Source of the DNA: Morinoia aosen
Taxonomy: Eukaryota; Arthropoda; Malacostraca; Amphipoda; Talitridae
Direction: 5' to 3'
Length of the DNA stretch: 64,000 nucleotides
Assembly: GCA_030386875.1 (NCBI GenBank)
Contig: CM059572.1
Location: 35,895,732 to 35,959,731 of the forward strand
Within the stretch, counting starts at the first letter, position 1; every line of letters starts with the position of its first letter. The translations under genes and the position numbers were made by a program. The notes below the pieces were generated by a model. It was not told the DNA's origin, made no database searches, and saw only the letters and a program-made list of their open reading frames with translations. Below, piece after piece: positions 1 to 64,000 of the stretch.

Positions 1-678
1 TCCTTGTGAGTTCATTGCACTTTGTTAGGTGTGGCCAGGTGGTCATGTCAGATTCTGTGTTGAGTGAACAGTTGTACAGGCCTAATCTGGCTCATACACT
101 CTTGACAATGGTTGGCACTTCTATTTTAAAATATAAGCATTCATATTTCTTGTTTAGAAGCTAATAAAACATTTGATCCTTATTTTTTCAGCATCCTAGA
201 TGGAGCGTATTAGCTTTGGAAATGTGAGGGCCCAAGCTGAGAGTTAGGTAGGCCTTCTTTTTGTTGAAATAAAATGTTTTTTTTTATGTTAAGGACCACC
301 TTTTTTCGGTTCACTACTGTCCTGTTTTTCAGTACCTCTGACTTTCTTCTTCAACTTTTATCTTATTTCATGAACTTCTTTCCCATCTTACTGTTTTTAT
401 GCCCTTTCTGCATAGATTCCTCATTTTCTTATCTCCATACTAAATGGTGCTTTCCTCCTTCCTCTCTTCGATACGCTCTATTTTTGCAGCGGTTAGGGAG
501 GGTTAAACTAACTTATAATCTAATCTAATCTAGCTTTGAAATTTGTTTAGTTATGCTTACCACTCTTCATTTGAGTGCTGAAGGTGGATGGCACTATACA
601 TTTTAGTTGTAATTTTTGCAATATCATTTTATGAATAAATTGCTATGCTTAGCTCATGCAGTCATGAATGTACCTCAG
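1..678 (+). other. TASP1 upstream intron
   Basis: No coding exon is seen here. The exon that should supply the residues before GAGDH (ending with one base of a Gly codon) is not recognisable and must lie upstream of the window. The stretch holds one SINE-like insertion (226-540). Confidence 0.6.
226..540 (+). mobile_element. SINE-like element (family A), forward copy
   Basis: This is a member of a family seen about 16 times in the window. It starts near CCCAAGCTGAGAG, contains CTGTCCTGTTTTTCAG and CTTTCCTCCTTCCTCTC, and ends in a TAATC-type tail (AATCTAATCTAATC). The flanks look like a diverged target-site duplication: TAGCTTTGGAAATGTG on the left and TAGCTTTGAAATTTG on the right. That supports insertion by retroposition, with the microsatellite tail marking the 3' end. 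Confidence 0.75.
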
Positions 679-746
679 GTGCTGGAGATCACAGCCTCTC
701 CAATCATCCAGTGTACAAGTTTTGGATGAAGGAAGCATGCAGGAAG
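679..746 (+). CDS. TASP1: TASP1 exon a (GAGDH block)
   Basis: The acceptor is CCTCAG and the donor AAG|GTGAGA. The exon is read in the frame that gives GAGDHSLSNHPVYKFWMKEA, ending ACRK. This aligns with the start of the mature alpha subunit of taspase 1 (GAGYH...ACQK in the human enzyme). The first Gly codon is split with the missing upstream exon; the exon ends in phase 0 and joins the next without a gap. Confidence 0.85.
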
Positions 747-3700
747 GTGAGACATGTTACCATAAAGGCAATGTAGTCCTGCTACTTAACTCTCGGCTCA
801 ACACTTTGATGCAGGTTGCTCTTTTCTATTTTGATTTATTAACTATAAGGAAGAAGTCATGCAAATGTGGCTCAGTTATGGCTCCAAAGATAGGCTTCTG
901 TGTGCTCTGCGTAGTGTCTTGATTAGTTTTTGTTTAAATTATGCATCTGTTCAGATCATCAACTCCGTGTGTTCCAGTTTAATAACCACGTATGCGATAC
1001 ATCGGATAATTTGAAGTTGGTTTTTCATGAGAAATGTCGATATTGATACCGGATTCTGAATGTAACTCTGAAACCGCTAATCTTCACTGTGAGTGCAGTA
1101 GAAGATAATACTTCTTGCTTTGGTTTATTGTCAGGACTGTTGCCTAATGATGCAAGGTGAAGCTAAGTAATTTATTTAATTATTTACTCATCAATTTATC
1201 ACACCTCGACACTATTAGGACTAATATGTTTTCTTGTGAACAAAATGTTATTTAAATTGTCACTCATAAAATCCCCTGAAGTGAATGCAATTATTGGATC
1301 TATGAAAATTAGCGCTCCTAGGGGGAACATGTGACATCCAGAGCTAAAGGTTTGGAATGGGTTTCATTGATTGAGATAAAAAGTTTTTTTGTTTTTTGTG
1401 ACCATCTGTTTTTGGTTCACTACTGTCCTGTTTTTCAATGCCTACTACTTTTTTCTCAACTTACTTTTCCTATGCACCTTGTGCATAGATTCTGCATTCC
1501 CTTAACTCCAAACTAAATGGTAACTTCCTCCTTCCTCTCTTTGGGGTGTCTTGTTGTGGTTAGCGAGGCTTAATCCAACTGTAATCTAATCTGTCACTTA
1601 CAAAAAACAAAGGTTGGAGGGGGGGGGCGATTTTTAGTGAAACATTCCTAGGATAACAATGACAAAATTATTTCTAAAGTCATTCAGAAATTATGATAGT
1701 TCTTGTAGAGTTAAAAATATCAACTCCTATATAGCTACTTTGTCAAAAGTTTAAAATGCTTTACTTGTTCCAAAGCAAAATTGACGAGTTGTTGGCCCAA
1801 GCTTTTTTGAATTTAGCAAGTTATTCATTTTACCACCACTGTCTGTTTCATTTTACATTATTTAATTGAATTTTTCCTTCCATGAATAGATTCTGTTTTT
1901 TGTGAGTAATATCGTTGTTTATTATCTATTCAAAACTAACTTCTCATAGTACTAGCTAATGAATTCGGCATTTGGTTTTTCTACTTTTTTAATGTTAATG
2001 TCTTAATTGTAAACAGTTGAAGGATGTTGAAAGTTTTGAAAATTTATAGTTTATAAACAACAATTCTCATTTCTGGATTGATTTTATTTTTTCCTTTCAT
2101 GTAATTGAATACCTTGTCAAATGTGAAACCATTAGCCTAAATATTACTGTTTCACAGGGGCAATTGATCTTAAAAGAAGGAGGCTCTGCTGTGGATGCTG
2201 TTGCAGCTGCCATTCAGGAGCTGGAGACGTGTGAGCTCACCAACACAGGCTATGGTTCAGCTCTCACTAACAAAGGTAGGTTCCTGTGCACTTTGTTTCT
2301 GCTCTCAAAAGTTGATCTAATTCATTTTTTGTGTTTGTTGCTCACCAAATTGACATTTCTGTGCGTATGTTGCTGACCAAATTGACATTTCTGTGTGTAT
2401 GTTGCTGACCAAATTGACATTTCTGTGTGTATGTTGCTGACCAAATTGACATTTCTGTGTGTATGTTGCTGACCAAATTGACATTTCTGTGTGTATGTTG
2501 CTGACCAAATTGACATTTCTGTGTGTATGTTGCTGACCAAATTGACATTTCTGTGTGTATGTTGCTGACCAAATTGACATTTCTGTGTGTATGTTGCTGA
2601 CCAAATTGACATTTCTGTGTGTATGTTGCTGACCAAATTGACATTTCTGTGTGTATGTTGCTGACCAAATTGACATTTCAGTGTGTATGTTGCTGACCAA
2701 ATTGACATTTGTGTGTATGTTGCTGACCAAATTGACATTTCTGTGTGTATGTTGCTGACCAAATTGACATTTCTGTGTGTATGTTGCTGACCAAATTGAC
2801 ATTTCTGTGTGTATGTTGCTGACCAAATTGACATTTCTGTGTGTATGTTGCTGACCAAATTGACATTTCAGTGTGTATGTTGCTGACCAAATTGACATTT
2901 CAGTGTGTATGTTGCTGACCAAATTGACATTTCTGTGTGTATGTTGCTGACCAAATTGACATTTCTGTGTGTATGTTGCTGACCAAATTGACATTTCTGT
3001 GTGTATGTTGCTGACCAAATTGACATTTCTGTGTGTATGTTGCTGACCAAATTGACATTTCTGTGTGTATGTTGCTGACCAAATTGACATTTCTGTGTGT
3101 AAGTTGCTGACCAAATTGACATTTCTGTGTGTATGTTGCTGACCAAATTGACATTTCTGTGTGTATGTTGCTGACCAAATTGACATTTCTGTGTGTATGT
3201 TGCTGACCAAATTGACATTTCTGTGTGTGTTGCTGTCCAAATTGACATTTCTGTGTGTATGTTGCTGACCAAATTGACATTTCTGTGTGTATGTTGCTGA
3301 CCAAATTCACATTTCTGTGTGTATGTTGCTGACCAAATTGACATTTTTATGTTGTAGCCCGTGGCAAATTTAACAAATGTAAAGAAATAATTTCAACTTG
3401 TTTACTTGAGAATGATTCCACAATCTAAACAAGTCTCCCTCTTAGGATAACATTAAATTTTGGATTGATGGTTAAACCCTTATTTAAAAATAATATTGAT
3501 ACATAGAATAATTATAATAATGATTAAAATAATGAACCTTGATTTATGACTTTCTTTACATTTTTCTTCATCTTTTTTACATTTAGCTAGTTCTTGTTGA
3601 TTTTTGTTGAGCAATGAATGAATGCTCAGAACCTAAAGGTTACTGAGGGAATTTCTTGTATTTATATAACTTTTTTCCTCTAAATACATTTCGATGAAAT

Positions 3701-6700
3701 GAGACATTGAGAAATTAATTTTGTAATCAAGGAGTAGGAGAAAGAAAACTTCTAAAATTGATATGTACAGTAACTGCTGATCTTTGCAAAATATTTATGG
3801 CTGGTTGTACTTTTCTATTTGTTAGTTTGTCGTAGCTTTTCTTATCTGTTACAGTTAGAGCAAAGCCATTTTAGTGCCAGAAGGTGCTCTATGCAAAAAG
3901 GCTTGTAAAGATTATCTTTTCAATGTAAAGCACTCAGATATTTTGAAGAATCCTGAGATTGGTCAGTGTGCTTCTGCTTCAAATTCTTATCACATTGTTT
4001 ATGACCTACAGTTGTTTGTGTTTTTGATTTATTCCTGAGATGTATCTATAATTCTTTATTCTTATAGCCGAATACTCTGGGTATATCTGAATTTTTAACA
4101 CGAATTCCTGTCAATATTTAGGAATTTTTAGTTAGGTTCAAACACATTTCTTGCCAATTTGTCCTGATCATCTGACCATGCGTAAAGAATATATTTATTT
4201 TTTGGTGATCATAGTGGTTCTAAAGTCAGTCTTGAATTTATTTCTAAATTTAACAGTTTTCTTTGACTTACAAGTCCTGCTGCTGTCTCTACATAACCTC
4301 AAATTTTCAGTTCATAGAACCATTTTTTCTCAGTGAAGTTAAATTCTTAATTGTACTTTTTTCTGTAAATTCTACCTAGCCACTCCACTGATGTTTCTTA
4401 TAAATACTTCAGAAAGTGGATATAATCAGTCTGCACTGCTTGTTACTGAAAGAGTTAGTGCTTTTCTCAGTTTTTTATAAATGTTTATTATTTAAACATT
4501 CAGCTTCAATTTCAATGGACTAAGGTAAGATGGTCCCATACTCAGTTCTGGGTGACTCCACTAGCCCATAGAGCCTTAAATGCATCTTTTTTCCATTCAA
4601 AATTCTTTATCCTGGTCAGATTTAAGAAAAATAACATTAATGCTCTTCATCATACTGATTCAAGTTATTAGATCGTGAGCGTTTTCCTTATATTTATAAA
4701 AACCTAGTTTTGTACCCAGTTTTCCGAAGTATTCCAATATAATACTGATTCAAAATTTTGCACAAGCTTACAGTATCACTCTTTGTTCACAAAATTCAAA
4801 GGGAGACTTTTTGCACAGGCTTGCAGTGTCACTCATCGTTCACAGAATCCAAGGAGGGAATCTTTTGTTCTGATATACTCGGGCTTGGATTGCTTATTTC
4901 CTGCCAGGGTTGCAGTGTCACTCTTGGTTCACAAAATTTCAAGAGGAGACTTTAGTTGTGATATAGTCTGACTTTATCTCCAATCTCCTGCTTTAATCAT
5001 GGAGAAATGGGTGCATGCATCATGAGTGTGCTGTTCACCAACAGGCACAGTGGAGTGTGACGCTGGCATCATGGACGGCGGGAGCCTGCTTCACGCAGGC
5101 GTGGGGGCTGTATCGGGCATAAAGCATCCCATCACAGTGGCACACAAGCTCTTGGCTCTCCAGAGCAAGCCGCTCCTGGGTAACCTCGTGCCGCCTGCGT
5201 GAGTTGTGCTTCCAAACTTCGTGTTTGGCTTAGAGTTGTGCTTCCAAACTTTGTGTTTGGCTTAGAGTTGTGCTTCCAAACTTTGTGTTTGGCTTAGAGT
5301 TGTGCTTCCAAACTTTGTGTTTGGCTTAGAGTTGTGCTTTCAAACTTTGTGTTTGGCTTAGAGTTGTGCTTCCAAACTTTGTGTTTGGCTTAGAGTTGTG
5401 CTTCCAAACTTTGTGTTTGGCTTAGAGTTGTGCTTCCAAACTTTGTGTTTGGCTTAGAGTTGTGCTTCCAAACTTTGTGTTTGGCTTAGAGTTGTGCTTC
5501 CAAACTTTGTGTTTGGCTTAGAGTTGTGCTTCCAAACTTTGTGTTTGGCTTAGAGTTGTGCTTCCAAACTTTGTGTTTGGCTTAGAGTTGTGCTTCCAAA
5601 CTTTGTGTTTGGCTTAGAGTTGTGCTTCCAAACTTTGTGTTTGGCTTAGAGTTGTGCTTCCAAACTTTGTGTTTGGCTTAGAGTTGTGCTTCCAAACTTT
5701 GTGTTTGGCTTAGAGTTGTGCTTCCAAACTTTGTGTTTGGCTTAGAGTTGTGCTTCCAAACTTTGTGTTTGGCTTAAAGTTGTGCTTCCAAACTTTGTGT
5801 TTAGCTTAGAGTTGTGCTTCCAAACTTCATGTTTGGCTTAGAGTTGTGCTTCCAAACTTCATGTTTGGCTTATAGTTGTGCTTATGAACTTCATGTTTGG
5901 CTTAGAGTTGTGCTTATGAACTTCATGTTTGGCTTAGAGTTGTGGTTATGAACTTCATGTTTGGCGTAGAGTTGTGCTCATGAACTTACTGTTTTGCCAA
6001 GAGGCTTGTCCTGATCTGCATTTGAAACGAGTGCTTTGATGTGCATTCAACTTTTAATTTAAATTGGTAGCGCTATCATTTCAAAAATTAACTGCTTAAG
6101 GTTTGTTAATGAGGCATCTCGATGTCTGAATTTGCTTTCAATAATTTTATTCACCTTGATGGAAACTTTTTAAATCAACGCTGTTGCTTTAGTTCAAAGA
6201 TTTGCGTGGTGTTATTGGTGCTTCAAGACTCAGGCGTAGTTTGTCATGTTTTGAATTCCCTGTTGCTTACTCTAATTTAAACACTAAGCTTTATTAACAT
6301 TTGCAAAGAGAAGAGACTAAGAGCGTTCAATTACATTTAGAAATGTGGATCTACCACTTTAATATCGCTTAACAAGTTAACTGTAATGGGTTAAACTGAA
6401 GTTCAATATTCAATCCAAATTTAAAGTCAATTGTGGTAGTCAAATTTGAAAATAGCAAACATTAACTGGATCGGGCATTTATTTAACTTTCATTAAGTAT
6501 CGATGAAAAATGAGTTAGTGACTCTAGGTAGGTCAGTAGCACTATGAAAGTCCCCCAAGTAACCACCGGTGGGTCACTTTGCTCGAAATGTGTTGATTAA
6601 TCTTTTGAAAATCTCCCTACTGCTTGAGAAGACATTAAAACATTAGTGCATAACTATATCACTGTTAGGGATAATTCCCAAACAAAATGCTAGTTTGTTT

Positions 6701-9700
6701 TGTCGAGTAACAGAATTTTTTTCAGCACAGTTTGCTGGTGGGAGAAGGAGCTGTGGAATGGGCTGCTGCCAATGGGCTGCAGGTGTGCGACGAGGCCAAG
6801 CTCGTGTCTGGTACGTGTGGTGAACGCAGGTCGTGACGCCACTTGTTTTCATGTTAACGCATTGACCACGTTTGCTCAAACATTGCAAACGATGCGTGAT
6901 GTCGTGGTGGCAGTGTTGATGGTCGTCATCATTGTCCTAGAACTACATCTTGTCACATATTTTTACATTTATTCACTATTGTCGAAAAATCTTGTTTCTT
7001 CTGCACCTTTGGCAGCTGGTAATGAATATTTTAGGCTATTCCAAAATATGTTTATTTCTACAGTGGTAGGTATGTAAAAAATAATTCATTTCCCATTTAA
7101 CAGCTTTAGTTGAAATATTATTACCATCTTTAAATTTGTAACAATAGTCAGGTAACACACACGTCTTTTTGATGTACAGCTTAGCATACCCTCGATGTAG
7201 TATTTTGATTGTCAGACTGCTACACACATTTTGTGGAATGAATTTCATTTTTGTTCCAGCAAAAAGTTTGGAGCGCCATCGTTATTACTTGCGCCAGCTT
7301 CGCAAGTTGAAGCACAAACAGAAGCGAGAAAAGCTTGCTTTAAACGAAGGGGCGGCTTGCAAAGATGGTTCAAGAAACTCAACCTGCAATGGTAATGCTC
7401 GAGAAACTGCTGTCAACAAACCATATGCTGGAGCTCACCCTTCAAACGCCAACGATAATGTCACTCATTCTCGTAACACCCGCCTCACGAATGAAGCTAG
7501 TAGTGTAAGTCTTTCTCACAACTGTAATGTGCCTGAAGCAGCCTGTAATGGTAAGAGTCAAGCTGCAAATACTGTCATATATACTCTTGCCAATGTAGAC
7601 AAAATGCAGGAGGAGTCCAGTAAAACTGGTGATAATTTTGCCTCAAACAACGCGGCAAGTAAAGATTCCGCTGGTGTTGAAGGCCTCTCCATCAAGTCTG
7701 CAAGCTGCGACAGTAACATGGATACTGGCGACGAGCCGGATCCTGTTGAGAGTCTGAGTGTGCATCAGGGCGACTCTTCAAGTCCCATGTTCAAGAAGAA
7801 CGTGAAACGTCGGAGTGAACTCACTCGTTGTGAAATTGAGAACGATCTTAACCAAGAAAAGTTGTCGTCTGTTAGCGAACAAAATTTGAAATGTCAGACT
7901 AATGTGGATAATCGCATGTTTGAAGAGAGTAAGAATGAACCAAGAAATTCTGACAGGGATGCCCTGCTATTAAAATCAACGCCAAAGAAAGGTTCTGAAA
8001 AACTACAACAAGAATTACTTCCTCTTGCCCATTCGTTGATGGCAGGACCACATCATACAAAAAAACCTGACAGCAACGAAAATATTGATAAAAAACGTAT
8101 GATTGACGATTCTCCATCACCCTCCAACAGACGTTCTAAGAGAATCAAAACTAAGCATTGCGCTGCAGCCTCACCATCTTTCGACTCTCAAACAAGCAAC
8201 TCGCCTGCAGTTCGGAAGTCGTTGCAGGTTTGTGGATGTGTTAGTGTGTAGCTTTGTGCAAATGTGCGACCCGAATGATTGCTGTATCAATTTGAACAGA
8301 CTTTTTTTCTATTGCTTGACATTTAGTACCGCATTCTTCATTTTAAGAATGCAACTACTGATAAGGGCATCTGTCAAGCTCGCTCAATCATACTGATTAG
8401 GGTTCACCAATATAACTTAATTTTTTGTGTTTTAGCTTAAGCACTAATTTATTGCAAATTATCAGCAGCTGTTTTTTTTGGTCAATATATCGTAGCTCAT
8501 GTAGGTAATAGTCCTTTTTCGATGCAGTCCAATTTCACCATCAATGCAGCTCAATGTGTTGTTTATTTCACGTTCAGTATTCCCACCCTGTCTTGAAATG
8601 AAATTCAACTGCTCTTGCACAAGCCGTTCTGCATAACTAAGTTCAAGCTTTTGAAGCCGTTGTGAGAAGTGGCCTCCTAGTGAATCGTATTAGACTAAAT
8701 GAGCTATAAATAGGTCTTCTGAACTTCTACCTTTAATGTCTACTTGCTTCTTTATGTTCTCATGCCTCCTTCATTACCTCTTTTTTATTTTTCCCTTTTC
8801 CGTCCTAACTTACTATTTTTTATGCTCAGGGTATCACTTCTAAAGAACACACTTCATGCATTACCTGTTTTAGTTCCCCATTTAATCCTTACTAAATGGT
8901 ACCCTGTCATTTGGAGATTGCCTTTGTTTTGATGAGGGAGATTTATACTGATAAAATGATGATTTTAATAACGGTTTTCAATGTCACTTCAAGTTTAAGG
9001 GCCTGTCTGCATCACTTCTTAATTGAAATGAACCAAAAGCTAACTTACTTATGCTAATTTGAACCTATCGTCTGTTTAACGTTGAAGAAATAGTAAAAGA
9101 TAATAGATTTCGTTACATGGCACACACGCGAATAGCGTAAATGCTGAATTTTAGAGTTGAATTTTGGATCACTCTACTTTAAGCTGCCAAGTGGGTGGCC
9201 TGTAACCTTCACACAATGAATCTTGGCATATCGGATATCTTACATGGCAGATGAGAAATTTAATAATCTTACCTAATAATACCCTTGGTCTGGTTATTTT
9301 TTTGTGTCCCCTTCTTAAAAAACAGTTTCTTCATTTGATTTGTAGGATGCTTAACGGCCGTATCTGTGATAAGAGAATATGTGCCAGTGCACATATTTTT
9401 ATCGCAGGTACTATAAGAATGGATATATTTGTTTTTCATCCACATCTGGGTGATTTATTTAAGAAAAATATTGAATCCCGTCATATTTGACGAGCCATGT
9501 ACAGTAGTTTAATAATAATATAAGAAATGTGTATCAGTCTGTGCTAGACACGGTGGGCTGCGTGGCCGTGGGGGCAGACGGCACCGTAGCGGCCGGTGCC
9601 TCTAGTGGCGGCATCCTGCTGAAGACGCCTGGCCGGGTGGGGCAGTCTGCTCTTATGGGCGCCGGCTACTGGGCTGAGAACAGCTGCAAAGGTGAGCTTT

Positions 9701-37290: not shown

Positions 37291-37416
37291 TACTTACCTG
37301 CTGGAGGCGCTCGACTTCCACGCTGCTCCACTCTTACCGGCTGGAGGCGTTCGACTTCCACGCTGCTCCACTCTTACCGGCTGGAGGCGTTCGACTTCCA
37401 CGCTGCTCCACTTACC
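37291..37416 (-). repeat. 40-bp array carrying four splice donors
   Basis: On the minus strand, donors appear at 37415, 37377, 37337 and 37297: CTG|GTAAGT, CCG|GTAAGA, CCG|GTAAGA and CAG|GTAAGT. Between them is the repeated GGAGCAGCGTGGAAGTCGA. Every unit keeps an apparently usable donor. Spacings are 38, 40 and 40, so choosing different donors would change the frame. Confidence 0.85.
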
Positions 37417-42325: not shown

Positions 42326-42554
42326 GCCAACAGTCACGCAATACCATGTCAAGTTAACTAATCGCGAACTCCTTTTGTTGCCTATCAAACTAAATATGTC
42401 GCGAAAAAATCGATAGAAATCAACTTCAAAACACCTCAGATTGCTAAAGTTAAAGCCTTGCTCACATCAATGAATCCAAAAAACAGGCCAATTATTGAAA
42501 CTTTGAAAGACTGCATTTACCAATTGGTCAAATTGCCATTTTAGTTCCCTGATG

Positions 42555-42810
42555 CTCGCCATAGCCATGTGGCTAGAGGGTTCTGCCGCCGTGCGGGAGA
42601 CCCGGGATCAAATCTCGGCGCTGGCAGTGGCGATTTTCTTTGTTGGGTATAGGGGAAAAATTCCAAGCACAATACCCCACTCTACCCAGGTGTCTGAAAT
42701 GGGTACCGGTCTCGACCGGGGGAAAGCGTCATGGCGTCCTGGCGTTAGTTATAAGGCATTTGAAAATCCAATGTACAAGGTGATATGTATCAGGCTTGAT
42801 TGGAAATAAA
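42555..42810 (+). mobile_element. tRNA-derived SINE (family B)
   Basis: The head resembles a tRNA: CCATGTGGCTAGAGGGTTCT (A-box-like TGGCTAGAGGG) followed by GACCCGGGATCAAATCTCGG (B-box-like GGATCAAATCT). The spacing suits RNA polymerase III promoters. The body has CTACCCAGGTGTCTGAAATG, shared with the fragment at 33186-33375. It is not a functional tRNA gene, since the arms do not all pair. Confidence 0.7.
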
Positions 42811-51435: not shown

Positions 51436-51624
51436 TCAGTTATCTTGTTCGTAGCCTTCAGTTTTGATGTCATTAAGTCCAAGGTCTTCGTTTTGCTGGA
51501 AGGTGCGCTCATAGTCCGTGACTTCGAGACAAGGATCGGGGTCTGGCGCGTACACGTTCTGCAGGTAGCTGTTGCCTGTGGGGTCGTCCATGATGAACGT
51601 GGCCTTCAGCTCGCCTGAAATTAT
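51436..51624 (-). CDS. ZPR1: ZPR1 terminal exon
   Basis: The acceptor is ATGTTGCAG|ATAATT; the stop TGA is at 51436-51438. It encodes [40 protein letters not shown] and [18 protein letters not shown]. The acceptor is the first of five tandem acceptor copies. Confidence 0.96.
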
Positions 51625-54600: not shown

Positions 54601-57600
54601 AGACATACGTGCTTCCGAGTGCGGGAGAGTCGCGCGAGGCTGCAGGCAATTTCAGCAACAATCGGATTCTTCGAGTTATAATTTCGGATGGCTAGGAGGG
54701 CTGCCTTAGAGTCTGAAAGTATTACGAATGGTCCCTGGATCTGGCGCTCCTCTACGATACGTAAGGCGGCGAGGATAGCGAGGAGTTCCGCTGAGTAGAT
54801 TGAGGTTTCGGGAAGCAACCTGTGCATCACCGTTTGCTCCTCAGTGACCGCGGCACAACCGACGGCACCGTCGGTCTTTGAGCCGTCCGTATATATCTTC
54901 ACAGCATCGTGATGATTTTGCAGTAGGTGATCAATGAACAGGTGCCGCAGTAGCACGCTTGTTTGATCATTTTTCTTGGGATAGTCAAGAGCTGGGCAAA
55001 AAGTTCCAATTGGGATCCGCCAAGTCGGCTCTCCTCCCTTTGGCGCCGGAGAAATCTCAAATGGTGGGAGTTGTGAAAGGCCTAGTAAAATCCCGTAGTC
55101 GGTGGTTGATGGAAGAAAGTAGGGGAAGGCATCATCAGCTTGAGCGTCTCCCACCACACTGTCCCAAGTAGGCGAGGCAGGGATCTGCTTAAGCCGCACG
55201 AGGTACTGCAGCGTTAATTGCGCTCGACGGTACTGCAGGGCTGGTTCGCCACTTTCTGCGAGCAAACTCAGAACCGGCGATGTCCTGAAGGCACCTGTGC
55301 ATAGCCTCAAAGCACTGTTGTGCACTGGATCTAATAATGATAAGGAGGAGACATTTGCAGTTTGGTAAATAATGCATCCGTAGTCGAGCTTTGCTCTGAT
55401 GGTAGCTCTGTAAATTCTCAGCAGGGTCACTCGATCTGCTCCCCAGGTCAGCTTAGAGAGGCATTTCAGAAGGTTCAGCTTTCGGGTACAGTTTCCTTTT
55501 AGAGCCTTTATATGAGGTTTCCATGAGAGTTTGTCATCAAAGATCATGCCCAGAAACGTCACAGTAGGGGAAGATCTTATTGGCCTACCCTGTAGGAGTA
55601 GCTCGGGAGTAGGTTCGTGAGTCCGGCTGGGCTGTATGTGCAACATCACGGTTTTTTCACTGGAGAGGGTGAATCCATGGTCCCGAGTCCAAGCATTTAT
55701 TCTATTAACTGCATCCTGCATACGACGGGTTAGAGCCGGCAGGTATCTCGAGGAGGCATAGATCATGAAGTCGTCTACGTACAACGAACATGAGATATTG
55801 GCTGGCAGGGCATTCGATATAGCGTCGATGGCTAACAAGAACAAGGTACAGCTTATAACGCTGCCCTGGGGAACGCCCTCAGTTTGGGTCATGAGTGGGG
55901 AAAGAGTAGAGCCAATCTTTACTCTGAAGCAGCGCCGCCTCAGGAACTCCTTAAGATAAAAAGCCAAGTTGCCTCTTATACCGAGCTCATGTACCCTCTT
56001 CAGAATTCCATATCGCCAAGTCGTGTCGTAAGCTTTCTGCATGTCAAAGAAGATACACATAGTGTGTTTACCTTGGATGCGGTGCCTGATAATATGGTTT
56101 TGAAGTCTAACAAGGGCGTCAGTAGTACCCCTCAGAGGTCGAAACCCAAATTGAACAGGGGAGAGGAGGTCTTGGGATTCCAAATGTCGCATCAGTCTAA
56201 TGTTGACAATTTTCTCTAAAAGCTTTCCCAAGCAGCTTGTCAAGGCTATTGGGCGGTAACTTGTCGCTTCTGTTGGGGGTTTGTTGGGCTTTGTAAAGGC
56301 CATTATTATGCTTAATTGCCAAGCAGAGGGGTAGGAGTGCGTTTCCCAGACTTTGTTGTAAAGAGAGAGGAGATATGTTATGGCTGTAGGGTGCATCTTT
56401 TTCAGCATTTTATAATATATTCCATCTGGTCCTGGTGCGGTGTTTCTGGATTGTTGAAGGGCATGAAATACTTCCAGATATGTAATTGGCTCATTGTAGG
56501 CATAATGTTCATCAGTAGTAAAATCAAGTTCCTCTGCCTCTTGTCGTTGCTTAAGTTGGATAAATGTAGGCGAAAAATGTCTCCCGCTGCTAATTTCCGC
56601 AAAGTGCTCAGCTAGATGGGTGGCTACGCGATCTAGGTCACATACCAGTTCTCCGTTTATTTCAAGTGATGGCAGTTTTTGTCGTCCTTTTCCCTTCATT
56701 TTCTGAATTCGTTGCCATATCTTGGAGGTTGGTGTGTCGGTGTTCAGCGAGGATACATATTGTTGCCAAGATTGCTTCCTGGCTGCCTTCTTAATGAATT
56801 GGGCTCTGGCTCTCGCTCTCTGGTAAAGAATTTTATCTGCAACCGTGCGACTGCGTTGGAAGCGTCGTAGAGCTCTTTTCCGTTCATAGTTGGCTCGCGC
56901 ACAGTTGTCGTTCCACCAGGGCACTCGATGTTGCACATAACCGCCTCTTGAGCGCGGGATGGATACGGATGCGGCGTCATTAATAGTTCTTCGGATTCTT
57001 TCTGCGGCATCATCCACGCTTTGGACTTCCTCTTCCTCGAGGGAAGTCAGCGCTTCGAAGGTACTCCAGTCAGCACGGTGGAGTTTGTAGCGCGGCTGCG
57101 TTAGAACGAGATGGCGAGTCAGTAAGGTCATTATGATGGGGAAGTGGTCACTCCCATGGGTATCTTCCAGTATGGCCCATTCAATATCTGGGGATATTTC
57201 AGGTGAGCAATGTGAGTCATGACATCTGAGTTTAGGAGACAGATGTCTGTGGTGGAGATCAATCGCTCAATGGTTTTTCCTCTCTGATCGCTAATGGAGT
57301 TGCCCCATGCAGCATGCTTAGCATTAAAATCTCCTGCCAGCAGAAACGGAGGAGGTAGCTGCGTGGTTAGATTGAGTAAGTCGTCAGGATTGAGAGCCAT
57401 ATTCGGGGGAATATATATGTTACACACGGTGAGATAGATCGCGAAAAGTTTGATTCGAACTGCCAATGTCTGAAAGGGTGAGTTTATATCTATCTTAAGT
57501 TGCGGCACGTCAGACCTGGTTAAAACTGCAAGTCCGGAGCCAGGAACAGGGTTAGGATTGGAGGAGGAGGTCTCCACATTGTACTGTTGGAGGTTGCCAG

Positions 57601-60600
57601 GCCTGATGTTACCAAGCATGGTCTCCTGTAGGCATATGCATGCGGGTTGGTGTTCTCGTAATATAGCTTGCAAGTCTTCATAATTTCGTCTAAAACCACG
57701 GCAATTCCATTGTATGATATTGTGCATTGAGCGACATTAAGGGAGATTTCTTGGTGGATCTTTTCTTGTTTCTAAATTCCGAATCTGTTGGCTTACAATG
57801 GTAGGAATAGGTCGTTCTCCGTCTGACTTTCTTCTGGTTTCTCCCCAAACCTGCATAGGGATAGCAGGCGGGGGCATTGACGGGAGGTTAGGAGGAGGAG
57901 GATATTTCTTGAGGAGGTCTGCACTGATGTCAGCTGGGACTTCAGTGACTCTGTCTAGAGAATGCATTCTCCGCGAGTGAGGCTGCGAGGGCTTTTTAAA
58001 ACTATCTCTGGAGAGGTGGGTCTGTGAGGTTGTGTTCCTTCTACTAATTGGGTATGCCTTTTCTTCATGCCTAGAATCCAATTGCCCTTTAGGGATTTTG
58101 TTGTGGCTAAGATCTTTTGGTGGTGTTCCGCTTTGAAGGCGCTTTCGAGGGATTCCTGTACTCACCTCCATTTCAACTGGCTTCCGATTTTGGGTTTGGC
58201 TCGTGGGATGAACTGCATCAGGGGCAGTAATATTTGGCTTTGCTGCGATTCGAGGCTTGTCTCGGTTGGAAATAGTCTTAGGTTTCTCAGTTTTTCGGCC
58301 TTCAACAGTAGTGTTCCTGGCATCCCTTGGATTTATTTCAGGTAGTATTAGAGGGGATTCTTCTCTGGTCGAAGTTGGGGTATTTTTGTAATGAGCATTT
58401 GGTGTAGGGATCTGCTCGGTATCTCGAGTGTCTTGGCTCTCTGTTGAGAGGCTCACTTCTGTACAGGCAGCGATGTTCTCTAGGGTACCAGCAGGCACAG
58501 TCTCCGAAGCAGGGTTCGGGGGTCTCCAACCGGAGGGAGCACTCATGGAGGTTACCGAGCGGCCTGCTTGGTGTGTCGCAGTCACATTTGTAGACCTGAG
58601 AACGTCTGCGAAGGAAGTGTTCTGTTTGACATAGCGGGCGGCTACTTTCCGCTTAGCTTCGACATATGATAGTCTATCTTTTACCTGCAGGGCCATAATC
58701 TCTTCTTCCCTCTTGTAGGTTGGGCAGCTCAAGGAGGAGGCCGGGTGAGGTCCTTCACAGTTAGAACAGCAAGCAGGTCGGGAGCAAGGTAGCTCATGTA
58801 ATTCCCCAGCACAGTGGTAACAGGTACTTAGGTCACTTCTGCACGTCCCAGCTCCATGTCCAAACTTTTGGCATTTAAAACACCGCCTGGGCTTGGGCAC
58901 ATATTGCCTGACAGAGCACTTTGTCCATCCTATTGAGACCTCAGCGGGCAGCTGACATGTATCGAAGGTTAATATATAAATTGGTTGGTCGATCAGGACT
59001 CCAGTGACTCTCTTTTTTGTTTGGTAGACCTCGAGAACTTTGTGTCTCTTGAGTCCCTCGAGGATTTCACTAGGTGAAAATTTGGGGTTATTTCTGTAAT
59101 AAATAGTGCCTTTTATTTGGTTAAGAGTTTTATGTGGTTCAACAGTCACCTCGTGTGAATCCAAAGATTTCAGGTTCATAATGGCTCGACTCTGGGCTTG
59201 GTTTGAGACCTCCACTATCAGTTGTCCCGATCTTGCTTCATTAATATTCTTGGGCGGGCCTCCGATAGTTCGTTCTATCTCGTCATTTGCCCTAATAACG
59301 TTGATGGTAGACAGGTTCACATCAGTAGGTGAGGAAATATGGAAGAATCGTTTGTATTCGGGTGCTTGCATCTGTTCCTCCAGCGGCGGGAAGAAGGAGA
59401 CGGAGCTGTTGACTCGTGGTCTCCGGGCTCGTCGCCCTCGTCCTCTATAAGCTGGTTGGTAGGGCTCTAGGGTTACATATTTCGGGCCATCTGGGTTTTC
59501 AGAAAGTTTCTCTGCAGTCAAGTGAGAATCGCTGTCTTTATTGAAGGGTGCAGCAGTCATCACCCTTGGAGTGGTCAGAGGAGAATCCATATGGGGGCTC
59601 AAGGTCATCAGAGGAGAAGTAGGGCTGGTTGTCCTTTTAGACATCCCAGCAGAGTCCGAGGGAAGCGCCGAGTCATTGCCGAGAAAAGGTTGGGGTTGAG
59701 AAGGGGGGCCCCATCCCCTGAGAGTTTTCAGAATTTTCATAATCGCCCATGGAGAGGCTGGTTCAAAAACGGCGGGTCTGTAGAGAGAATACAACTCCCA
59801 GTTGCCCGCCCCAGGGAGAGGGCTCTGCCAATCTGAAGACGGACAGAGCTTTAAAAACTGCTTATTGTCGCCTTTGAACCCCGGCGACCACTCAGCTCAT
59901 CAGCACAGTTAAACCTTGAGCTTGGGGTTTTGCCACCCCAGTTAGTCAGATCTCTCCAGCAGAGCCACTCCAACATGATTGAATCTGCCGGGGAGACCAA
60001 TTCTCCCCGAAGGCCCAGCCCCCGCCTTCCTCGAGACACGCAAGCCCCCTCCCCACGACAAGGGCAGGATGGCGCGAGGGGGTGTGAGTGAAAAAGCATA
60101 CAGTGGGTGTGAAAAAAGCACAATATAAGTACTAGAAAATAGAAAAAAAGTGCTACAATGAGGAAGACAAAGAGTACATAATTTCGAGCCTATAACATTG
60201 GGAACAAGCAACTGATGTGAGAGCAGCAAGATGCTAGGCATAAAGTTTTGAAAAATAGTAAATAAATAGTACAAACGGTAAATAAATAGCAAGTGTTCAT
60301 ACCACATAAGTATCGCTATATTCGACCTTCCCCAGCAGATTATTATATTATTATATAAGAAAAGTTTTAGCTTCGCTTAATTGCACGACAAAGATGTTCT
60401 AAGAGAGGAAGGAGGAAGGCACCATTTAGTATGGAGTTGAGGGAACGCGGAATCTATGCGCAAGGTGCACAGAAACAGGAAGCTAAGAAAGAAGTTCATG
60501 AAACAAGAAAAAGTTGAAGAAGAAAGTAGTAGGTGCTGAAAAACAGGACAGCAGTGAACCGAAAAAAGATGATCCGTAACAAAACAAAAACCTATTCTAT

Positions 60601-62684
60601 TTCAACAAAAGGAAGCCTACCTAGCCTTTAGCTCGGGCCCTCACATAGTCCCCCCTGGGAGCGTTCCCCAGCAGATATTAGCAGCAAAAAACAAAGGCAA
60701 CCAAACAATTTAGAAAACAGAAAATATTCTCGGAGAAACCCTTTTACTCATTTACTCTCCCCCCACTTTATTCCTTTTAGCTAAAAAGGCCCGGGAATAC
60801 ATAACAATAGTAAAAATAGTGCAATGTATATAAATTTTACCCCTAAGCCCTTCCATACACAAATATAGCTCTCAATGAAGATGATTCCTCAGAACGCATG
60901 CCCTCTTCTCATTCCACTTCAATTTGAGAAACCTTGAGAATACAACTCGACTATAAAAGTAAAGCCCTCAATGCAAACGATTCTCTTATAAATGCTACAG
61001 TGTACACTCATAACCTTGTGAATGTAACCCGCTTATAGAAATTAAGAATTTAATATGCACATTGGTGTATAAATGCTACACAGCAAATAAAAAACATTTC
61101 TCTATAAATGCAACACAGCTCGCACAAAACCCAACAACAAAGCTCTCTGTGTGCGTGTGAGTATGAATGCAATACATCCCGCACAAAACCTTTCAAACTT
61201 ACAATAAAGCTCTCATCAAAACAACAAGTATCAGTTAAACAGAACACGCACTTGCCGCCGAGAATACCAGCGCCGACATGGAGCTCAAGCTCCGGGATTT
61301 GGACATCGCAAGTCTCGCTCTTGAGCACGTCCCTGGCCATGTCCAGCTCGGGGTCGTCCAGCCTGAGCACGATGCGGCGCCCGCGCGGGGAGATGCCGCC
61401 GCCTGACTTCACCTCGGACGTCCTGTTGCCGCAGTGGTCGCACACCGTCGCCATGATCACCACCTCCTGCACACGTCGACATTCCCGTCAACAAACCATT
61501 GAATCTAAATTTCATGGCCTCCTGCACAGGTCGCCATTCCCGTCAACACACGCTCAGCAATCAGGTCTAAATTTCATAGGGCATTTATTTGGGTTGGTTA
61601 CATTGATGTTTATTTTAGGAGTATTACTGCTTGATTGCTTATGCCAAAAGGATTCATGAATAGGCTTTGAATGTGAGTTATGCGTATTTGTTTTGATGGA
61701 TTTGTGCCTGCTCTTGTACATGGCACAATGTTTTTGAATGGGATTCAACTCCACAGTGTAGGTTATTTTGGAATAATTGCGCCACCTCTTGTACTAATAC
61801 AGCCCAATTACATACAGAAACAAGCTTTAAAGCTGACATACATCTATATTTCCCATTGATGTTGTATGCTGTACACGCCACAACGTTCGTGAATAACTAT
61901 AAATTCATAATTTATGTACATTCATTTTATGAGGATGCAAGGAATTATTTGAAACTTAGTTTTTTAGTCGAGTGAAATCTAGATTCACACGATATATGGA
62001 CCTGACATCAATTTGGCATTGGCTCTCCTCATAATCCAGTTAGCTTAATACATTTTCCCACACATTGTTTTCAATACATAACACGACCATCCTAATTAAC
62101 ATGTGACACGTACATCACAATTAAATTCAACACATTCATCACGTTAAGAGCATTTACCACATAACGCGTAGATCTACTTAACACATATGTTTACCAAGTT
62201 TGAAATGTAACACATTGGCTTGCATTTGACGTGTAACACATATTGGCATTTGAAATATAGTGGGCTAAATTAAAAACATGCTCATCACATTTACTATGCA
62301 ACACATTCTTTGCGTGTAGCACGCTCATCATAACACATACGTAGAAACACACACCCCGCACTCCTGACTAATTACCACACATCATTGATGACTTCCACTG
62401 AACTTCACAAGCAGCAGTCGTACCTTGAAGTGCGGAATATTGGTGAGCTTCATGTTAGTTTTGGCAGGACGCTGGCACCGGTCGCACAGCTCGGAGAACT
62501 GCAATACCTCATTTGCTAAATTGTCTTCATCTTCATCCTCAGTTTTGTGCTCTTCACTGCCTTCTTTTGTAGGTTGACACTTGTCTGATTTGTTCCCTTG
62601 AGAATCGCCAGATTTTTCACCAGTTTTGTTCTGATGTTCCACTTCTTCTTCGTCCTCTTCTTTCACGTTGTCCAATTTTTCTTT
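51436..62684 (-). CDS. ZPR1: ZPR1 zinc-finger protein, last four exons
   Basis: Exons, 5' to 3' on the minus strand: 62424-62684, 61252-61466, 52614-52743 and 51436-51624. They join in phase into about 264 residues. The sequence follows the second half of eukaryotic ZPR1 almost block for block: [104 protein letters not shown]1 is an essential protein that binds eEF1A and assists its folding; it has two CX2C-CX2C zinc fingers, each followed by a beta-rich domain. The window holds finger 2 and its domain. The first half lies beyond the right edge. The intron at 52744-61251 has been enlarged by a LINE insertion. All key cysteines are present. Confidence 0.96.
51617..51892 (-). repeat. 55-bp array repeating the ZPR1 terminal-exon acceptor, five copies
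   Basis: Each unit contains, on the minus strand, GGCCATGTTGCAG|ATAATTT, i.e. the real 3' splice site plus the first exon bases. The acceptor AG is intact in all five (G at 51625, 51680, 51735, 51790, 51845). After an upstream copy the frame would read ATA ATT TGA, a stop in the third codon, whereas the true exon reads ATA ATT TCA. Confidence 0.93.
51893..52613 (-). other. ZPR1 intron
   Basis: No transposon or exon recognised beyond the acceptor array. Confidence 0.5.
52614..52743 (-). CDS. ZPR1: ZPR1 exon (FTTLEGLL block)
   Basis: The acceptor is GTTGCCAG|GTTCAC and the donor GATCAG|GTGGGT. It encodes [20 protein letters not shown], then [20 protein letters not shown] and IDQ, matching [13 protein letters not shown]...NPFTLGDS in ZPR1. 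Confidence 0.95.
52955..53825. repeat. 871-bp direct repeat, left copy (LINE flank)
   Basis: Identical to 60094-60964 apart from one difference seen by eye (G at 53809, C at 60948). It abuts the 3' tail of the LINE exactly. It contains a complete family A SINE. Confidence 0.95.
53215..53525 (-). mobile_element. SINE-like element (family A) inside the duplicated flank
   Basis: A good family copy ending GGGAGCGTTCCCC. It has its own target repeat TTCCCCAGCAGAT on both sides (near 53190 and 53525) and an ATT-type tail. The same insertion is present at 60355-60664, so it predates the duplication. Confidence 0.88.
53826..53850 (-). repeat. (TAC)n 3' tail of the LINE
   Basis: Six or seven copies of GTA on the plus strand (CTACTAC on the element strand) lie exactly between the 871-bp repeat and unique LINE 3' sequence. 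Short microsatellite tails instead of poly(A) are usual for I-type elements. Confidence 0.85.
54057..57131 (-). CDS. LINE ORF2, reverse transcriptase and RNase H part
   Basis: Open for 1,024 codons from an internal ATG. The true reading enters from the upstream endonuclease frame; residues just before the ATG still read as the end of the endonuclease (GSDHFPII). [15 protein letters not shown] near 232, FFDMQKAYD near 361, GVPQGSVIS near 419, YVDD at 451-454. RNase H: D749 (YTDGS), E782 (SAELLAI), D807 (SDSKA), D857 (GNDRAD). C-terminal CGDC...HLLAEC near 955-971. All catalytic residues are present. Confidence 0.95.
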   Translation of the reverse strand: MTLLTRHLVLTQPRYKLHRADWSTFEALTSLEEEEVQSVDDAAERIRRTINDAASVSIPRSRGGYVQHRVPWWNDNCARANYERKRALRRFQRSRTVADKILYQRARARAQFIKKAARKQSWQQYVSSLNTDTPTSKIWQRIQKMKGKGRQKLPSLEINGELVCDLDRVATHLAEHFAEISSGRHFSPTFIQLKQRQEAEELDFTTDEHYAYNEPITYLEVFHALQQSRNTAPGPDGIYYKMLKKMHPTAITYLLSLYNKVWETHSYPSAWQLSIIMAFTKPNKPPTEATSYRPIALTSCLGKLLEKIVNIRLMRHLESQDLLSPVQFGFRPLRGTTDALVRLQNHIIRHRIQGKHTMCIFFDMQKAYDTTWRYGILKRVHELGIRGNLAFYLKEFLRRRCFRVKIGSTLSPLMTQTEGVPQGSVISCTLFLLAIDAISNALPANISCSLYVDDFMIYASSRYLPALTRRMQDAVNRINAWTRDHGFTLSSEKTVMLHIQPSRTHEPTPELLLQGRPIRSSPTVTFLGMIFDDKLSWKPHIKALKGNCTRKLNLLKCLSKLTWGADRVTLLRIYRATIRAKLDYGCIIYQTANVSSLSLLDPVHNSALRLCTGAFRTSPVLSLLAESGEPALQYRRAQLTLQYLVRLKQIPASPTWDSVVGDAQADDAFPYFLPSTTDYGILLGLSQLPPFEISPAPKGGEPTWRIPIGTFCPALDYPKKNDQTSVLLRHLFIDHLLQNHHDAVKIYTDGSKTDGAVGCAAVTEEQTVMHRLLPETSIYSAELLAILAALRIVEERQIQGPFVILSDSKAALLAIRNYNSKNPIVAEIACSLARLSRTRKHVCLCWVPGHVDVRGNDRADEAARQAAGSTMPPRNTAVPCRDFYPLIKAAIGDIWQQQWNDIGENKLRKCKNTVRAWPSSSHRNRRLEVLLCRLRIGHTRLTHKYLIERNPQPLCGDCLVPLTVRHLLAECPSLADFRLQYYPTLPRDNHDAFLEGMLGDPPRGAFNFDSLIAFLSDAHLIDEI
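57131..57727 (-). pseudogene. LINE ORF2, apurinic endonuclease part (frameshifted)
   Basis: Starts 9 bases after the ORF1 stop with [20 protein letters not shown]. Endonuclease motifs are QWNCRG, CLQET, YIPP and [11 protein letters not shown]. After DVMTHIAH the frame is wrong: the following bases in another frame read [20 protein letters not shown], the normal end of the domain. A short segment that usually contains the IDLT motif appears deleted together with a frame change, so ORF2 cannot be made as one protein and the copy is probably not autonomous. Confidence 0.9.
57737..59794 (-). CDS. LINE ORF1, gag-like nucleic-acid-binding protein
   Basis: 685 codons, open from end to end. It has a Pro/Ser-rich N-terminal part, a central region (about 160-300) resembling the RRM-like part of I/Jockey ORF1 proteins, and three zinc knuckles: C305-C308-H313-C318, C325-C328-H333-C337 and C343-C346-H350-C357. 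A long charged, disordered tail follows. Translation may begin at a later Met (for example [10 protein letters not shown] near 51). It packages the element RNA. Confidence 0.93.
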   Translation of the reverse strand: MYSLYRPAVFEPASPWAIMKILKTLRGWGPPSQPQPFLGNDSALPSDSAGMSKRTTSPTSPLMTLSPHMDSPLTTPRVMTAAPFNKDSDSHLTAEKLSENPDGPKYVTLEPYQPAYRGRGRRARRPRVNSSVSFFPPLEEQMQAPEYKRFFHISSPTDVNLSTINVIRANDEIERTIGGPPKNINEARSGQLIVEVSNQAQSRAIMNLKSLDSHEVTVEPHKTLNQIKGTIYYRNNPKFSPSEILEGLKRHKVLEVYQTKKRVTGVLIDQPIYILTFDTCQLPAEVSIGWTKCSVRQYVPKPRRCFKCQKFGHGAGTCRSDLSTCYHCAGELHELPCSRPACCSNCEGPHPASSLSCPTYKREEEIMALQVKDRLSYVEAKRKVAARYVKQNTSFADVLRSTNVTATHQAGRSVTSMSAPSGWRPPNPASETVPAGTLENIAACTEVSLSTESQDTRDTEQIPTPNAHYKNTPTSTREESPLILPEINPRDARNTTVEGRKTEKPKTISNRDKPRIAAKPNITAPDAVHPTSQTQNRKPVEMEVSTGIPRKRLQSGTPPKDLSHNKIPKGQLDSRHEEKAYPISRRNTTSQTHLSRDSFKKPSQPHSRRMHSLDRVTEVPADISADLLKKYPPPPNLPSMPPPAIPMQVWGETRRKSDGERPIPTIVSQQIRNLETRKDPPRNLP
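60094..60964. repeat. 871-bp direct repeat, right copy (LINE flank)
   Basis: Partner of 52955-53825, abutting the 5' end of the LINE. It includes the duplicated SINE at 60355-60664. Confidence 0.95.
60965..61251 (-). other. ZPR1 intron with degenerate repeats
   Basis: ATAAATGCTACAC, ATAAATGCAACACAGC, AAGCTCTC and CGCACAAAACC recur at about 50-70 base spacing up to the exon donor, like a decayed tandem array. Confidence 0.55.
61252..61466 (-). CDS. ZPR1: ZPR1 exon (second zinc finger, DVLKSETC block)
   Basis: The acceptor is GTGTGCAG|GAGGTG and the donor GGCAA|GTGCGT. It encodes [40 protein letters not shown] and [24 protein letters not shown] is the second CX2C half of the zinc finger. It is GC-rich compared with its flanks. 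Confidence 0.96.
61463..61580 (-). repeat. Tandem duplication (55-bp period) of the ZPR1 exon acceptor
   Basis: On the minus strand, ACGGGAATGTCGACGTGTGC|AG at the exon is preceded 55 bases upstream by ACGGGAATGGCGACCTGTGC|AG, both followed by GAGG. The second acceptor is intact; 55 is not a multiple of three. Confidence 0.85.
61581..62423 (-). other. ZPR1 intron
   Basis: From 62050 to 62350 there is a degenerate array around AACACATTCATCAC and ACACATATG at about 25-30 base spacing; otherwise unremarkable. Confidence 0.5.
62424..62684 (-). CDS. ZPR1: ZPR1 exon (acidic linker and CX2C half-finger)
   Basis: The acceptor is AATTGCAG|AAAGAA and the donor TTCAAG|GTACGA. It encodes an acidic Glu/Lys-rich linker of about 55 residues, then [20 protein letters not shown] and [14 protein letters not shown] is the first CX2C of finger 2. 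The linker is longer than the roughly 20-residue vertebrate one. Confidence 0.93.
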
Positions 62685-62880: not shown

Positions 62881-62929
<49 letters not shown>

Positions 62930-63300
62930 TATTATTATTATTATTATTGTGTAAGAAGGTTTTAGCCTCCCTTTACCATGATAATGTTGTTCAAAGAGAG
63001 GAAGGATGAAGGCATCATTTAGTAAGGAGTTGAAGGAACGTGGAATCTATGCACAAGGGTGCATAGGAACAGTAAGCTAAGAAATAAGTTCATGAAACAA
63101 GAAAAAGTTCAAGAAGAAAGTAGTAGGTGCTGAAAAACAGAAGAGCAGAGAACCTGAAAAAGATGGTCCATAACAAAACAAAAACCTATTCTATTTTAAC
63201 AAAAAGAGAGTCTACCTAACCTTTAGCTCGGGCCCTCACATATTCCTCCTGGGAGAGCTAATTTCCATCGATACAATAGTTGTATCCACCTGAGGGGATA
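62881..63300 (-). mobile_element. SINE-like element (family A) with ATT tail and target repeats
   Basis: Flanked by a perfect 10-base repeat TACTCAAGAA (62871-62880 and 63301-63310). The (ATT)n run at 62881-62947 lies inside the repeats, so it is the element's 3' tail. The head ends with the palindrome GATACAATAGTTGTATC. Confidence 0.92.
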
Positions 63301-63729
63301 TACTCAAGAAGAACCAGACAAACCGCACGCAATACATAAGGAGATTGAGAAACTGCACTAACCACCTCTCAAACTACCTCTATTTTATCGCCATTGCCTA
63401 AAAGCTCTATGTTAAATCCAGCAAATTATTGTGACAAAAACAGTCAAGCAGGTTGGTGGATTATTTTCCTGGTTTTTATTATTAAGAAAGAAAAGAGCAC
63501 GAATAGAATGAATAAACAAGGCAACAAAAACGAGTCAAGTGCCTCATTCTTGGTTTGTTATTCTAATACTTGGTAACTAAATAGACACAGTAGATAAAGC
63601 CAAAAGCAACTAGCATTAGTAAAGAGATTATTAGTTAAGACGAAAATAGTTATGACTAACTAAATAATGGTTTCATCACAAAATGCTACTAACTTTTTAC
63701 GTGTCTGATTCGAATGTCACCATTAAATT

Positions 63730-64000
63730 CAGTAAGTTACTTCCCTAACCACAAAAAAAGATGACCCAAATGTGGAACGTGCCATTCAGTACAAAGCTGA
63801 AAGAATGAGTAATCTATGCACTAGGTGTTTTTCTCCACAAGATTCCCTGCACATAAAAATAGCAAGTCAAGAGAAAAGTTTATGAAAAAAGATAAAATTT
63901 GAAGAAGAAAGTAACAGGTGCTGAAAAAACCTGACAGTAGTGAACCAAAAAATGGTGTCTAGCATAGGAGAAAAACTATTCTATTTCAACAAAAAGAATA
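63730..64000 (-). mobile_element. SINE-like element (family A), runs off the window
   Basis: CTTCCCTAACCACAAAAAAA, TGCACTAGGTGTTTTTCTCC, AAAACCTGACAGTAGTGAAC and TCTATTTCAACAAAAAGAA match the family; the head is beyond the edge. Confidence 0.75.

What the first reader, a model, noticed from the sequence alone, without database searches (positions are those of the whole stretch)
1..64000. Tandem arrays repeatedly nucleate on exon-intron junctions
Of about 17 mapped splice junctions, at least six are embedded in tandem duplications: TASP1 at 5199, 9692 and 11730, GT31 at 24356, and ZPR1 at 51624 and 61466. The unidentified donors at 37.3 kb add a seventh case. Another array begins about 55 bp after the donor at 2276. 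Unit lengths cluster at 32-55 bp. Chance placement in introns this long is unlikely. A shared process, for example duplication by an intron-targeted mechanism, repair of R-loop or transcription-linked breaks, or intron-gain-like junction copying, would be novel. I know of no established system that does exactly this.
Basis: inference. Interest (0 to 1): 0.88.

Follow-up and report, generated by a model that had tools for sequence, protein, structure and literature searches.

The report
Repeat arrays seeded at splice donors
In this animal genome, short repeated DNA arrays start at or across the ends of exons (the splice donor sites) far more often than elsewhere in introns, as if the place where splicing begins were a hot spot for DNA duplication.

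Summary
I mapped 29 window junctions (TASP1, ZPR1, a GT31 gene) and found tandem arrays by an annotation-free scan. Array starts lie within 62 bp of 6 of 14 donors; two ZPR1 acceptors also carry spanning repeats. The 11730 case is weak; 37.3 kb has no identified exon.

I took stretches of the same genome (contig C1, 57 Mb). In 21 spaced 10-kb pieces arrays fill 16.5%. At 51 donors and 48 acceptors mapped there (beta-spectrin, an ankyrin/CAP-Gly gene, a TSP1 gene), array starts are 10.6 times denser from -35 to +70 of donors than further into introns (18 starts in 4.5 kb, 13 in 34 kb; p about 6e-10 if starts are independent); acceptors 2.3-fold (p 0.06). In several arrays the first unit copies 10-32 exon bases plus the donor into the intron. 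Donor-like motifs that are not splice sites are not hot. Arrays are mutually unrelated, so born locally.

Most likely, local duplication is triggered at working 5' splice sites, perhaps by transcription or splicing, then amplified. Selection for extra donors is the main rival. Mechanism not shown. Whole-genome and literature searches failed.

The parts
678..15245 (+). TASP1 (threonine aspartase 1) coding exons 678-746, 2158-2275, 5045-5198, 6731-6810, 7260-8227, 9538-9691, 11580-11729, 13593-13747, 15018-15245 (start of the first is not fixed)
   Evidence: one open frame through 8 introns; PDB phmmer E 1.2e-30 and 1.3e-21, no gap across the 5198 and 9691 junctions
2323..3346 (+). 32-bp array, ~32 copies, starting 48 bp after the donor at 2275
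   Evidence: TRF; scan gives 2330-3352
5201..5978 (+). 32-bp array, ~24 copies, starting at intron base +3 of the donor at 5198; later units hold no donor match of 7/9 or better
9679..10508 (+). 34-bp array, ~24 copies; first unit = last 13 exon bases + donor GTGAGC; 22 inner units lack the GT, the last two read GGTGGGC and GGTGAGC
   Evidence: alignment score 18 against the intron
11764..11838 (+). two-copy 40-bp repeat, 35 bp after the donor at 11729 (weak case)
   Evidence: not above control
16200..24560 (-). GT31 (galactosyltransferase) exons: about 24560-24356, 20905-20700, 17977-17848, 16586 to about 16200 (outer ends approximate)
   Evidence: PF01762 E 1.7e-9 on the last three joined; the 24356 end is not fixed by a homologue
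24057..24370 (-). degenerate ~37-bp array across the putative GT31 donor at 24356; 4 donor-like sites at 8/9, 6 at 7/9
37293..37412 (-). three 40-bp copies with four GGTAAG sites; host exon not identified
51618..51884 (-). five 55-bp units, each with the acceptor TTGCAG|ATAATTT of the ZPR1 last exon; use of an upstream copy would put a stop at the third codon of the exon
   Evidence: ZPR1 join without gap against 2qkd
61463..61551 (-). two-copy 55-bp duplication across the ZPR1 acceptor at 61466
51436..62684 (-). ZPR1 exons 62684-62424, 61466-61252, 52743-52614, 51624-51436
   Evidence: PDB phmmer 2qkd E 1.5e-107; positions

Best explanation
Working 5' splice sites are mutational hot spots for short local tandem duplication in this genome. 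Shown: array starts concentrate from -35 to +70 of donors; in a good share of cases the first unit holds exon tail + donor, so the seed was a duplication of the junction itself; the arrays share no sequence with each other; the donor motif alone, away from splice sites, is not hot. Inferred: a lesion tied to transcription or splicing at the exon-intron border (for example Pol II pausing, an R-loop or nicks near the U1-bound site) is repaired by fill-in and end joining, or by template switching, giving a tandem copy of about 25-90 bp at or across the donor. The copy is tolerated because the donor nearest the exon is still used. Ordinary unequal exchange or slippage then expands it to as many as ~50 units.
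For: Array-start density from -35 to +70 of donors against +71 to +1500: sampled loci 18 in 4.5 kb vs 13 in 34 kb, 10.6-fold, p 6e-10; window 6 in 1.2 kb vs 4 in 13.3 kb, 16.8-fold, p 5e-5. Each of five subsets gives 5- to 30-fold with p below 0.01, among them L028-29, whose junctions were written down before arrays were looked at (3 of 12 donors). Random placement outside exons: 12 of 51 sampled donors with an array start at -35..+35 vs 2.55 expected, p 1.7e-4 (the floor of that run); acceptors 4 of 48 vs 2.52, p 0.24. A copy of the exon end in the next 150 bp of intron at 11 of 52 donors vs 0.5 expected from swapped pairs; in 9 of the 11 the copy includes the donor. Against the first-unit rate inside introns: 11 of 51 vs 2.9 (p 1.3e-4). 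Non-splice donor motifs (8/9 or better): 12 of 246 start a duplication, the background rate. Among 124 clusters only 3 pairs are similar, each within one locus or neighbourhood, one of them a single array cut by a stretch end.
Against: No DNA-break, R-loop, expression or polymorphism data. In the blind set 0 of 12 donors had a junction-spanning copy; its 3 near arrays start 11-23 bp downstream. L025-27 alone showed no excess when any array edge was counted (5 of 44 junctions within 60 bp vs 4.7). Acceptors are also enriched in the window (5.8-fold, p 0.03) and in L016/L017/L019 (5.5-fold, p 0.008), and the direct donor-acceptor contrast in spanning copies is not significant (11 of 63 vs 5 of 62, p 0.095), so strict donor specificity is not settled. 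No growth polarity toward the donor (9 of 14). The -35..+70 zone was drawn after the profile, which included every locus; the -35..+35 test was fixed before the blind set was fetched. Six named genes of one genome only; p-values treat starts as independent.
Confidence: 0.5

Rival explanations
1. Selection: duplications arise evenly, but those that add 5' splice-site copies or U1-binding sites just inside the intron are favoured or kept longer (redundant donors, suppression of premature polyadenylation).
For: Donor motif kept in many units: 5 sites in L024 3902-4201, 45 sites in L022 7150-8562. Donors enriched more than acceptors.
Against: In TASP1 9679-10508 22 inner units lack the GT, and 5201-5978 has no donor match of 7/9 or better. 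Arrays starting 10-56 bp downstream, such as L022 1640, L016 8403 and window 2330, are not among the 8 of 97 arrays with a repeated donor motif.
Confidence: 0.2
2. No hot spot: introns are so full of arrays that many junctions are touched by chance, and only duplications that keep the coding sequence survive.
For: Arrays cover 16.5% of the spaced sample; about 26% of intronic positions in the mapped genes have a tandem copy within 150 bp. First units across acceptors are at the background rate (4 of 53 vs 3.3). L025-27 gave no excess with the any-edge count.
Against: Placement controls that keep array number and length and keep arrays out of exons give 4.7-fold at donors; near-to-far density ratio 11.9 over all loci.
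Confidence: 0.15
3. Sequence-driven: GC-rich exon ends, hairpins or the GGTRAGT string itself slip easily.
For: Arrays with a repeated donor motif: 8 of 97 vs 2.5 expected (p 0.01), which the other explanations also predict.
Against: Non-splice motifs are at background: 12 of 246 at 8/9, 61 of 1320 at 7/9, though genic antisense ones reach 17 of 194 (p 0.058). Hairpin z-scores of nine units lie between -1.84 and +1.12. Acceptors border the same exons yet show less.
Confidence: 0.1
4. A mobile element or introner carries arrays with splice sites into genes.
For: Introners are a known source of splice-site-bearing repeats (recalled).
Against: First units copy the host exon's own coding end; array units are unrelated between genes.
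Confidence: 0.03

Closest known systems
Minisatellites (VNTR arrays)
   Same: Head-to-tail units of about 20-80 bp, 2 to 50 copies, inner units often homogenised
   Different: Their starts are focused on 5' splice sites, often with the exon end inside the first unit
Intron gain by tandem genomic duplication (AGGT model; Yenerall and Zhou 2012, PMC3443670, passages seen)
   Same: A local tandem duplication that copies a splice-site-like sequence
   Different: There an exonic segment is duplicated and a new intron results; here one splice site of an existing intron is copied into that intron and no intron is gained
[quoted passage not shown] passages seen)
   Same: Gap filling makes short direct repeats
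   Different: No new intron; the repeats are tandem and lie at an existing donor
Introner elements (recalled)
   Same: Repeats associated with splice sites across many genes
   Different: No shared sequence between loci; copies come from the local exon-intron border

Membership tests
Minisatellite | tandem units of roughly 10-100 bp | tested here: met
Minisatellite | copy-number polymorphism | not testable with these tools
   one assembly only
Intron gain by tandem genomic duplication | the duplicated segment is exonic and a new intron is formed between the two copies | tested here: not met
   duplicated segments straddle the donor of an intron whose acceptor lies elsewhere
Introner / mobile satellite | similar sequence at many unrelated sites | tested here: not met
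   3 similar pairs among 124 clusters, each within one locus or neighbourhood
Transcription-coupled mutational hot spot | depends on transcription or splicing of the site | tested here: inconclusive
   non-splice donor motifs are at background; no expression or break data

The most novel reading that the evidence does not exclude
In this lineage the act of using a 5' splice site during transcription makes DNA duplicate locally, so that about a third of donors (24 of 65 examined have an array start from -35 to +70) seed an intronic array. Splicing would then write its own position into the genome, drive intron growth, and produce rows of near-identical donors among which the spliceosome must choose.
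Probability: 0.4. Interest if true: 0.92.

Novelty: new variant of a known kind. Interest (0 to 1): 0.76.

Why it matters
Where minisatellites are born, and why introns grow, are open questions. A tenfold concentration of array starts at donors would tie tandem duplication to RNA processing. It also gives a testable system: natural rows of 5 to 45 donor-like sites next to one exon, and five identical acceptors in ZPR1 of which only the last keeps the frame, are experiments on splice-site choice and a possible source of alternative splice sites.

Tried and rejected
Hairpin-prone units: no consistent signal (nine units, both strands, z -1.84 to +1.12). Donor motif at array edges without annotation, window only: 3 of 20 clusters at 8/9 matches vs 0.56 (p 0.017) and 6 of 20 at 7/9 vs 2.71 (p 0.048); the 9/9 test crashed. 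Motif alone as the cause: not supported. Growth polarity: 9 of 14 donor-start arrays more uniform near the donor, no better than a coin. Hidden old duplications at the other 24 window junctions: no shift of the mean score (7.4 vs 7.2 in swapped pairs). Rotation test on L025-27 counting any edge: no excess (5 of 44 vs 4.7); with exon-facing starts the same loci give 5 of 21 donors, 5.4-fold, p 0.01. Blind set: 0 of 12 donors and 1 of 9 acceptors with a spanning copy, though 3 of 12 donors have an array start at -35..+35.

Rows dropped: two L025-27 donor motifs I wrote down were not found in the sequence; for L028/L029 one acceptor was not found, and one donor of L028 whose sequence I saw (CTAGG|GTGGGT) and some acceptors were not listed. 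Likely exons left out of the junction lists: L026 1964-2020, L027 7245-7409, the L024 ORFs above 4600, and the acceptor of the unnamed L016 exon 281-470. L023 and L030 gave no mapped junction and entered no junction test. Array edges lying on a stretch end were left out of the edge tests. Some outer exon ends used in the placement tests are approximate.
Full report
WHAT WAS CLAIMED.

JUNCTIONS. I mapped 29 window junctions from reading frame and canonical splice sites. TASP1 gives one frame through nine exons and matches solved TASP1 structures without a gap across the 5198 and 9691 donors. ZPR1 matches 2qkd (E 1.5e-107), without a gap across both acceptors that carry repeats. Three GT31 exons match PF01762 (E 1.7e-9), but the end of its first mapped exon (24356) has no homologue to fix it, and a stronger donor string lies at 24287 inside the array.

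ARRAYS. TRF and a shift scan that knows nothing of genes agree on the main arrays. After merging there are 19 clusters in the window. Of the five multi-copy arrays in gene spans, four have an edge within 15 bp of a junction and the fifth at 55 bp; random placement outside exons gives 0.18 within 15 bp (p 1e-5; 0.27 and 3.5e-5 without the LINE). Leaving the two strongest cases out of the clusters in gene spans (12 of 14 left) still gives p 1.5e-4 on summed log distances. The case at 11730 is not a convincing spanning repeat. Counting exon-facing starts from -35 to +70, 6 of 14 window donors have one: 2275 (55 bp), 5198 (3), 9691 (spanning), 11729 (35, two copies), 24356 (spanning) and 61252 (62, two copies) (clusters).

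WHAT THE UNITS SHOW. In the 9679 array the first unit is the last 13 exon bases plus GTGAGC; the last two units read GGTGGGC and GGTGAGC, and the 22 units between lack the GT. The exon is conserved coding sequence, so the copying went from the exon end into the intron (inference). The ZPR1 array has five units with the same acceptor; splicing to any but the last would read ATA ATT TGA, a stop (unit sequences; frame).

THE SAME GENOME ELSEWHERE. The genome search did not complete, but stretches of the window's own assembly could be taken. Twenty-one 10-kb pieces, one at the start of contig C1 and twenty at 2.8-Mb steps, hold 69 clusters covering 16.5% of the bases; the window has 8.9%, so it is not unusually rich. 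A codon-usage scan found host genes that I could name in three of the 21 pieces: L016 (ankyrin + CAP-Gly), L017 (beta-spectrin) and L019 (TSP1 repeats); Pfam and PDB agree. The L016 exon 281-470 has no Pfam match and rests on codon usage. I then took neighbouring stretches of these genes, chosen for gene continuity and not for arrays.

REPLICATION. Clear cases: L016 281 (GGCAGCATTG|GTGAGTG; 53-bp units carry GGCGGCATTGGTGAGTG or close variants), L016 9010 (array edge at the donor), L022 6277 (31 exon bases inside the array, 82-bp unit), L022 7163 (14 exon bases, 28-bp unit, about 50 copies), L024 4170 (32 exon bases, 5 units with CAG|GTGAGG). Copies of exon tail + donor also lie at L027 559 and L026 1223. 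The acceptor at L019 1542 is spanned too.

TESTS. (a) Rotation of clusters within loci, 34 junctions of L016, L017, L019, L022, L024: 14 within 60 bp of an edge vs 4.4 (p 8e-5). The 44 junctions of L025-27 alone: 5 vs 4.7, no excess. (b) Placement outside exons, counting only the array end that faces the exon, at -35..+20: donors 8 of 39 vs 1.64 (p 3e-4, the floor), acceptors 2 of 39 vs 1.75. With L028 and L029, whose junctions were written down before arrays were looked at: blind donors 3 of 12 at -35..+35 vs 0.45 (p 0.003), blind acceptors 0 of 9; all sampled donors 12 of 51 vs 2.55; acceptors 4 of 48 vs 2.52. (c) Density of array starts per unoccupied base in the sampled loci: donors 4.03 per kb at -35..+70, 0.27 at +71..+600, 0.52 at +601..+1500; acceptors 1.45, 0.71 and 0.55. 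Near to far, donors are 5- to 30-fold in each of five subsets, p below 0.01 each; acceptors 5.8-fold in the window, 5.5-fold in L016/L017/L019, and 0, 1.4 and 0 in the other three subsets. (d) A copy of the exon end in the next 150 bp of intron: 11 of 52 donors above the 99% level of swapped pairs (0.5 expected), 9 of them with the donor; 4 of 54 acceptors. Against the rate of first units inside introns: donors 11 of 51 vs 2.9 (p 1.3e-4), sampled loci only 9 of 37 (p 3.6e-4), acceptors 4 of 53 vs 3.3. The blind donors added 0 of 12: pooled 11 of 63 vs 3.6, p 9e-4; donors against acceptors 11 of 63 vs 5 of 62, p 0.095. The p-values in (c) and (d) treat starts and junctions as independent, and the zone in (c) was drawn after the profile.

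CAUSES TESTED. Donor-like motifs that are not annotated junctions start a duplication in 12 of 246 cases, the background rate (true donors against them p 0.002). Units do not fold unusually. Array units are unrelated between genes. There is no growth polarity. So a local event at a working donor is indicated, not a motif and not an inserted element.

MECHANISM. Shown: focus on donors; junction segments copied into the intron; local birth. Inferred: the lesion is linked to transcription or splicing; the copy is near neutral because the donor nearest the exon is used; expansion by ordinary minisatellite turnover. Selection for extra donors is the main rival; the missing GT in 22 units of one array and in the later units of another speaks against it but does not exclude it.

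LITERATURE. No search could be completed. I saw passages of two papers by id: the Parhyale genome paper (PMC5111886; 12 of 16 places for tandem, repeat content, intron size and splice; none of those shown describes such arrays) and a review of intron gain (PMC3443670; 12 of 21 places), which describes duplication of exonic AGGT making new introns, a different outcome. I therefore make no claim that this is absent from print. The species is not known to me; the gene set suggests an invertebrate, probably an arthropod (inference).

Noticed in passing
window 52955-53825 and 60094-60964: An 871-bp direct repeat, 99.9% identical (one mismatch), flanks a minus-strand non-LTR retroelement (endonuclease, RT and RNase H matched in Pfam) in a ZPR1 intron: either an extraordinarily long target-site duplication or an assembly effect.
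   Followed up: partly
window 39241-40265: Two different arrays back to back (25 bp x 15.5 and 21 bp x 30.3, the latter 100% matching), outside any identified gene; the 21-bp unit holds the donor-like string AAGGTGATT.
   Followed up: partly
L001-L021: The genome is very rich in minisatellites: 69 clusters, 16.5% of 210 kb, a few 10-kb pieces about half array, two with none.
   Followed up: partly
L022 7150-8562: About 50 copies of a 28-bp unit put 45 donor-like sites (8/9 or better) directly after one beta-spectrin exon; how the first is chosen is unknown.
   Followed up: no
L016 3654-3815: A 31-bp array with TTAG|GTGAGT in its units, between exons of the CAP-Gly gene; no exon was identified in front of it.
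   Followed up: no
window 42550-42800: A stretch resembling a tRNA-derived SINE by eye (promoter-box-like strings, recalled); ARAGORN reports no tRNA.
   Followed up: no
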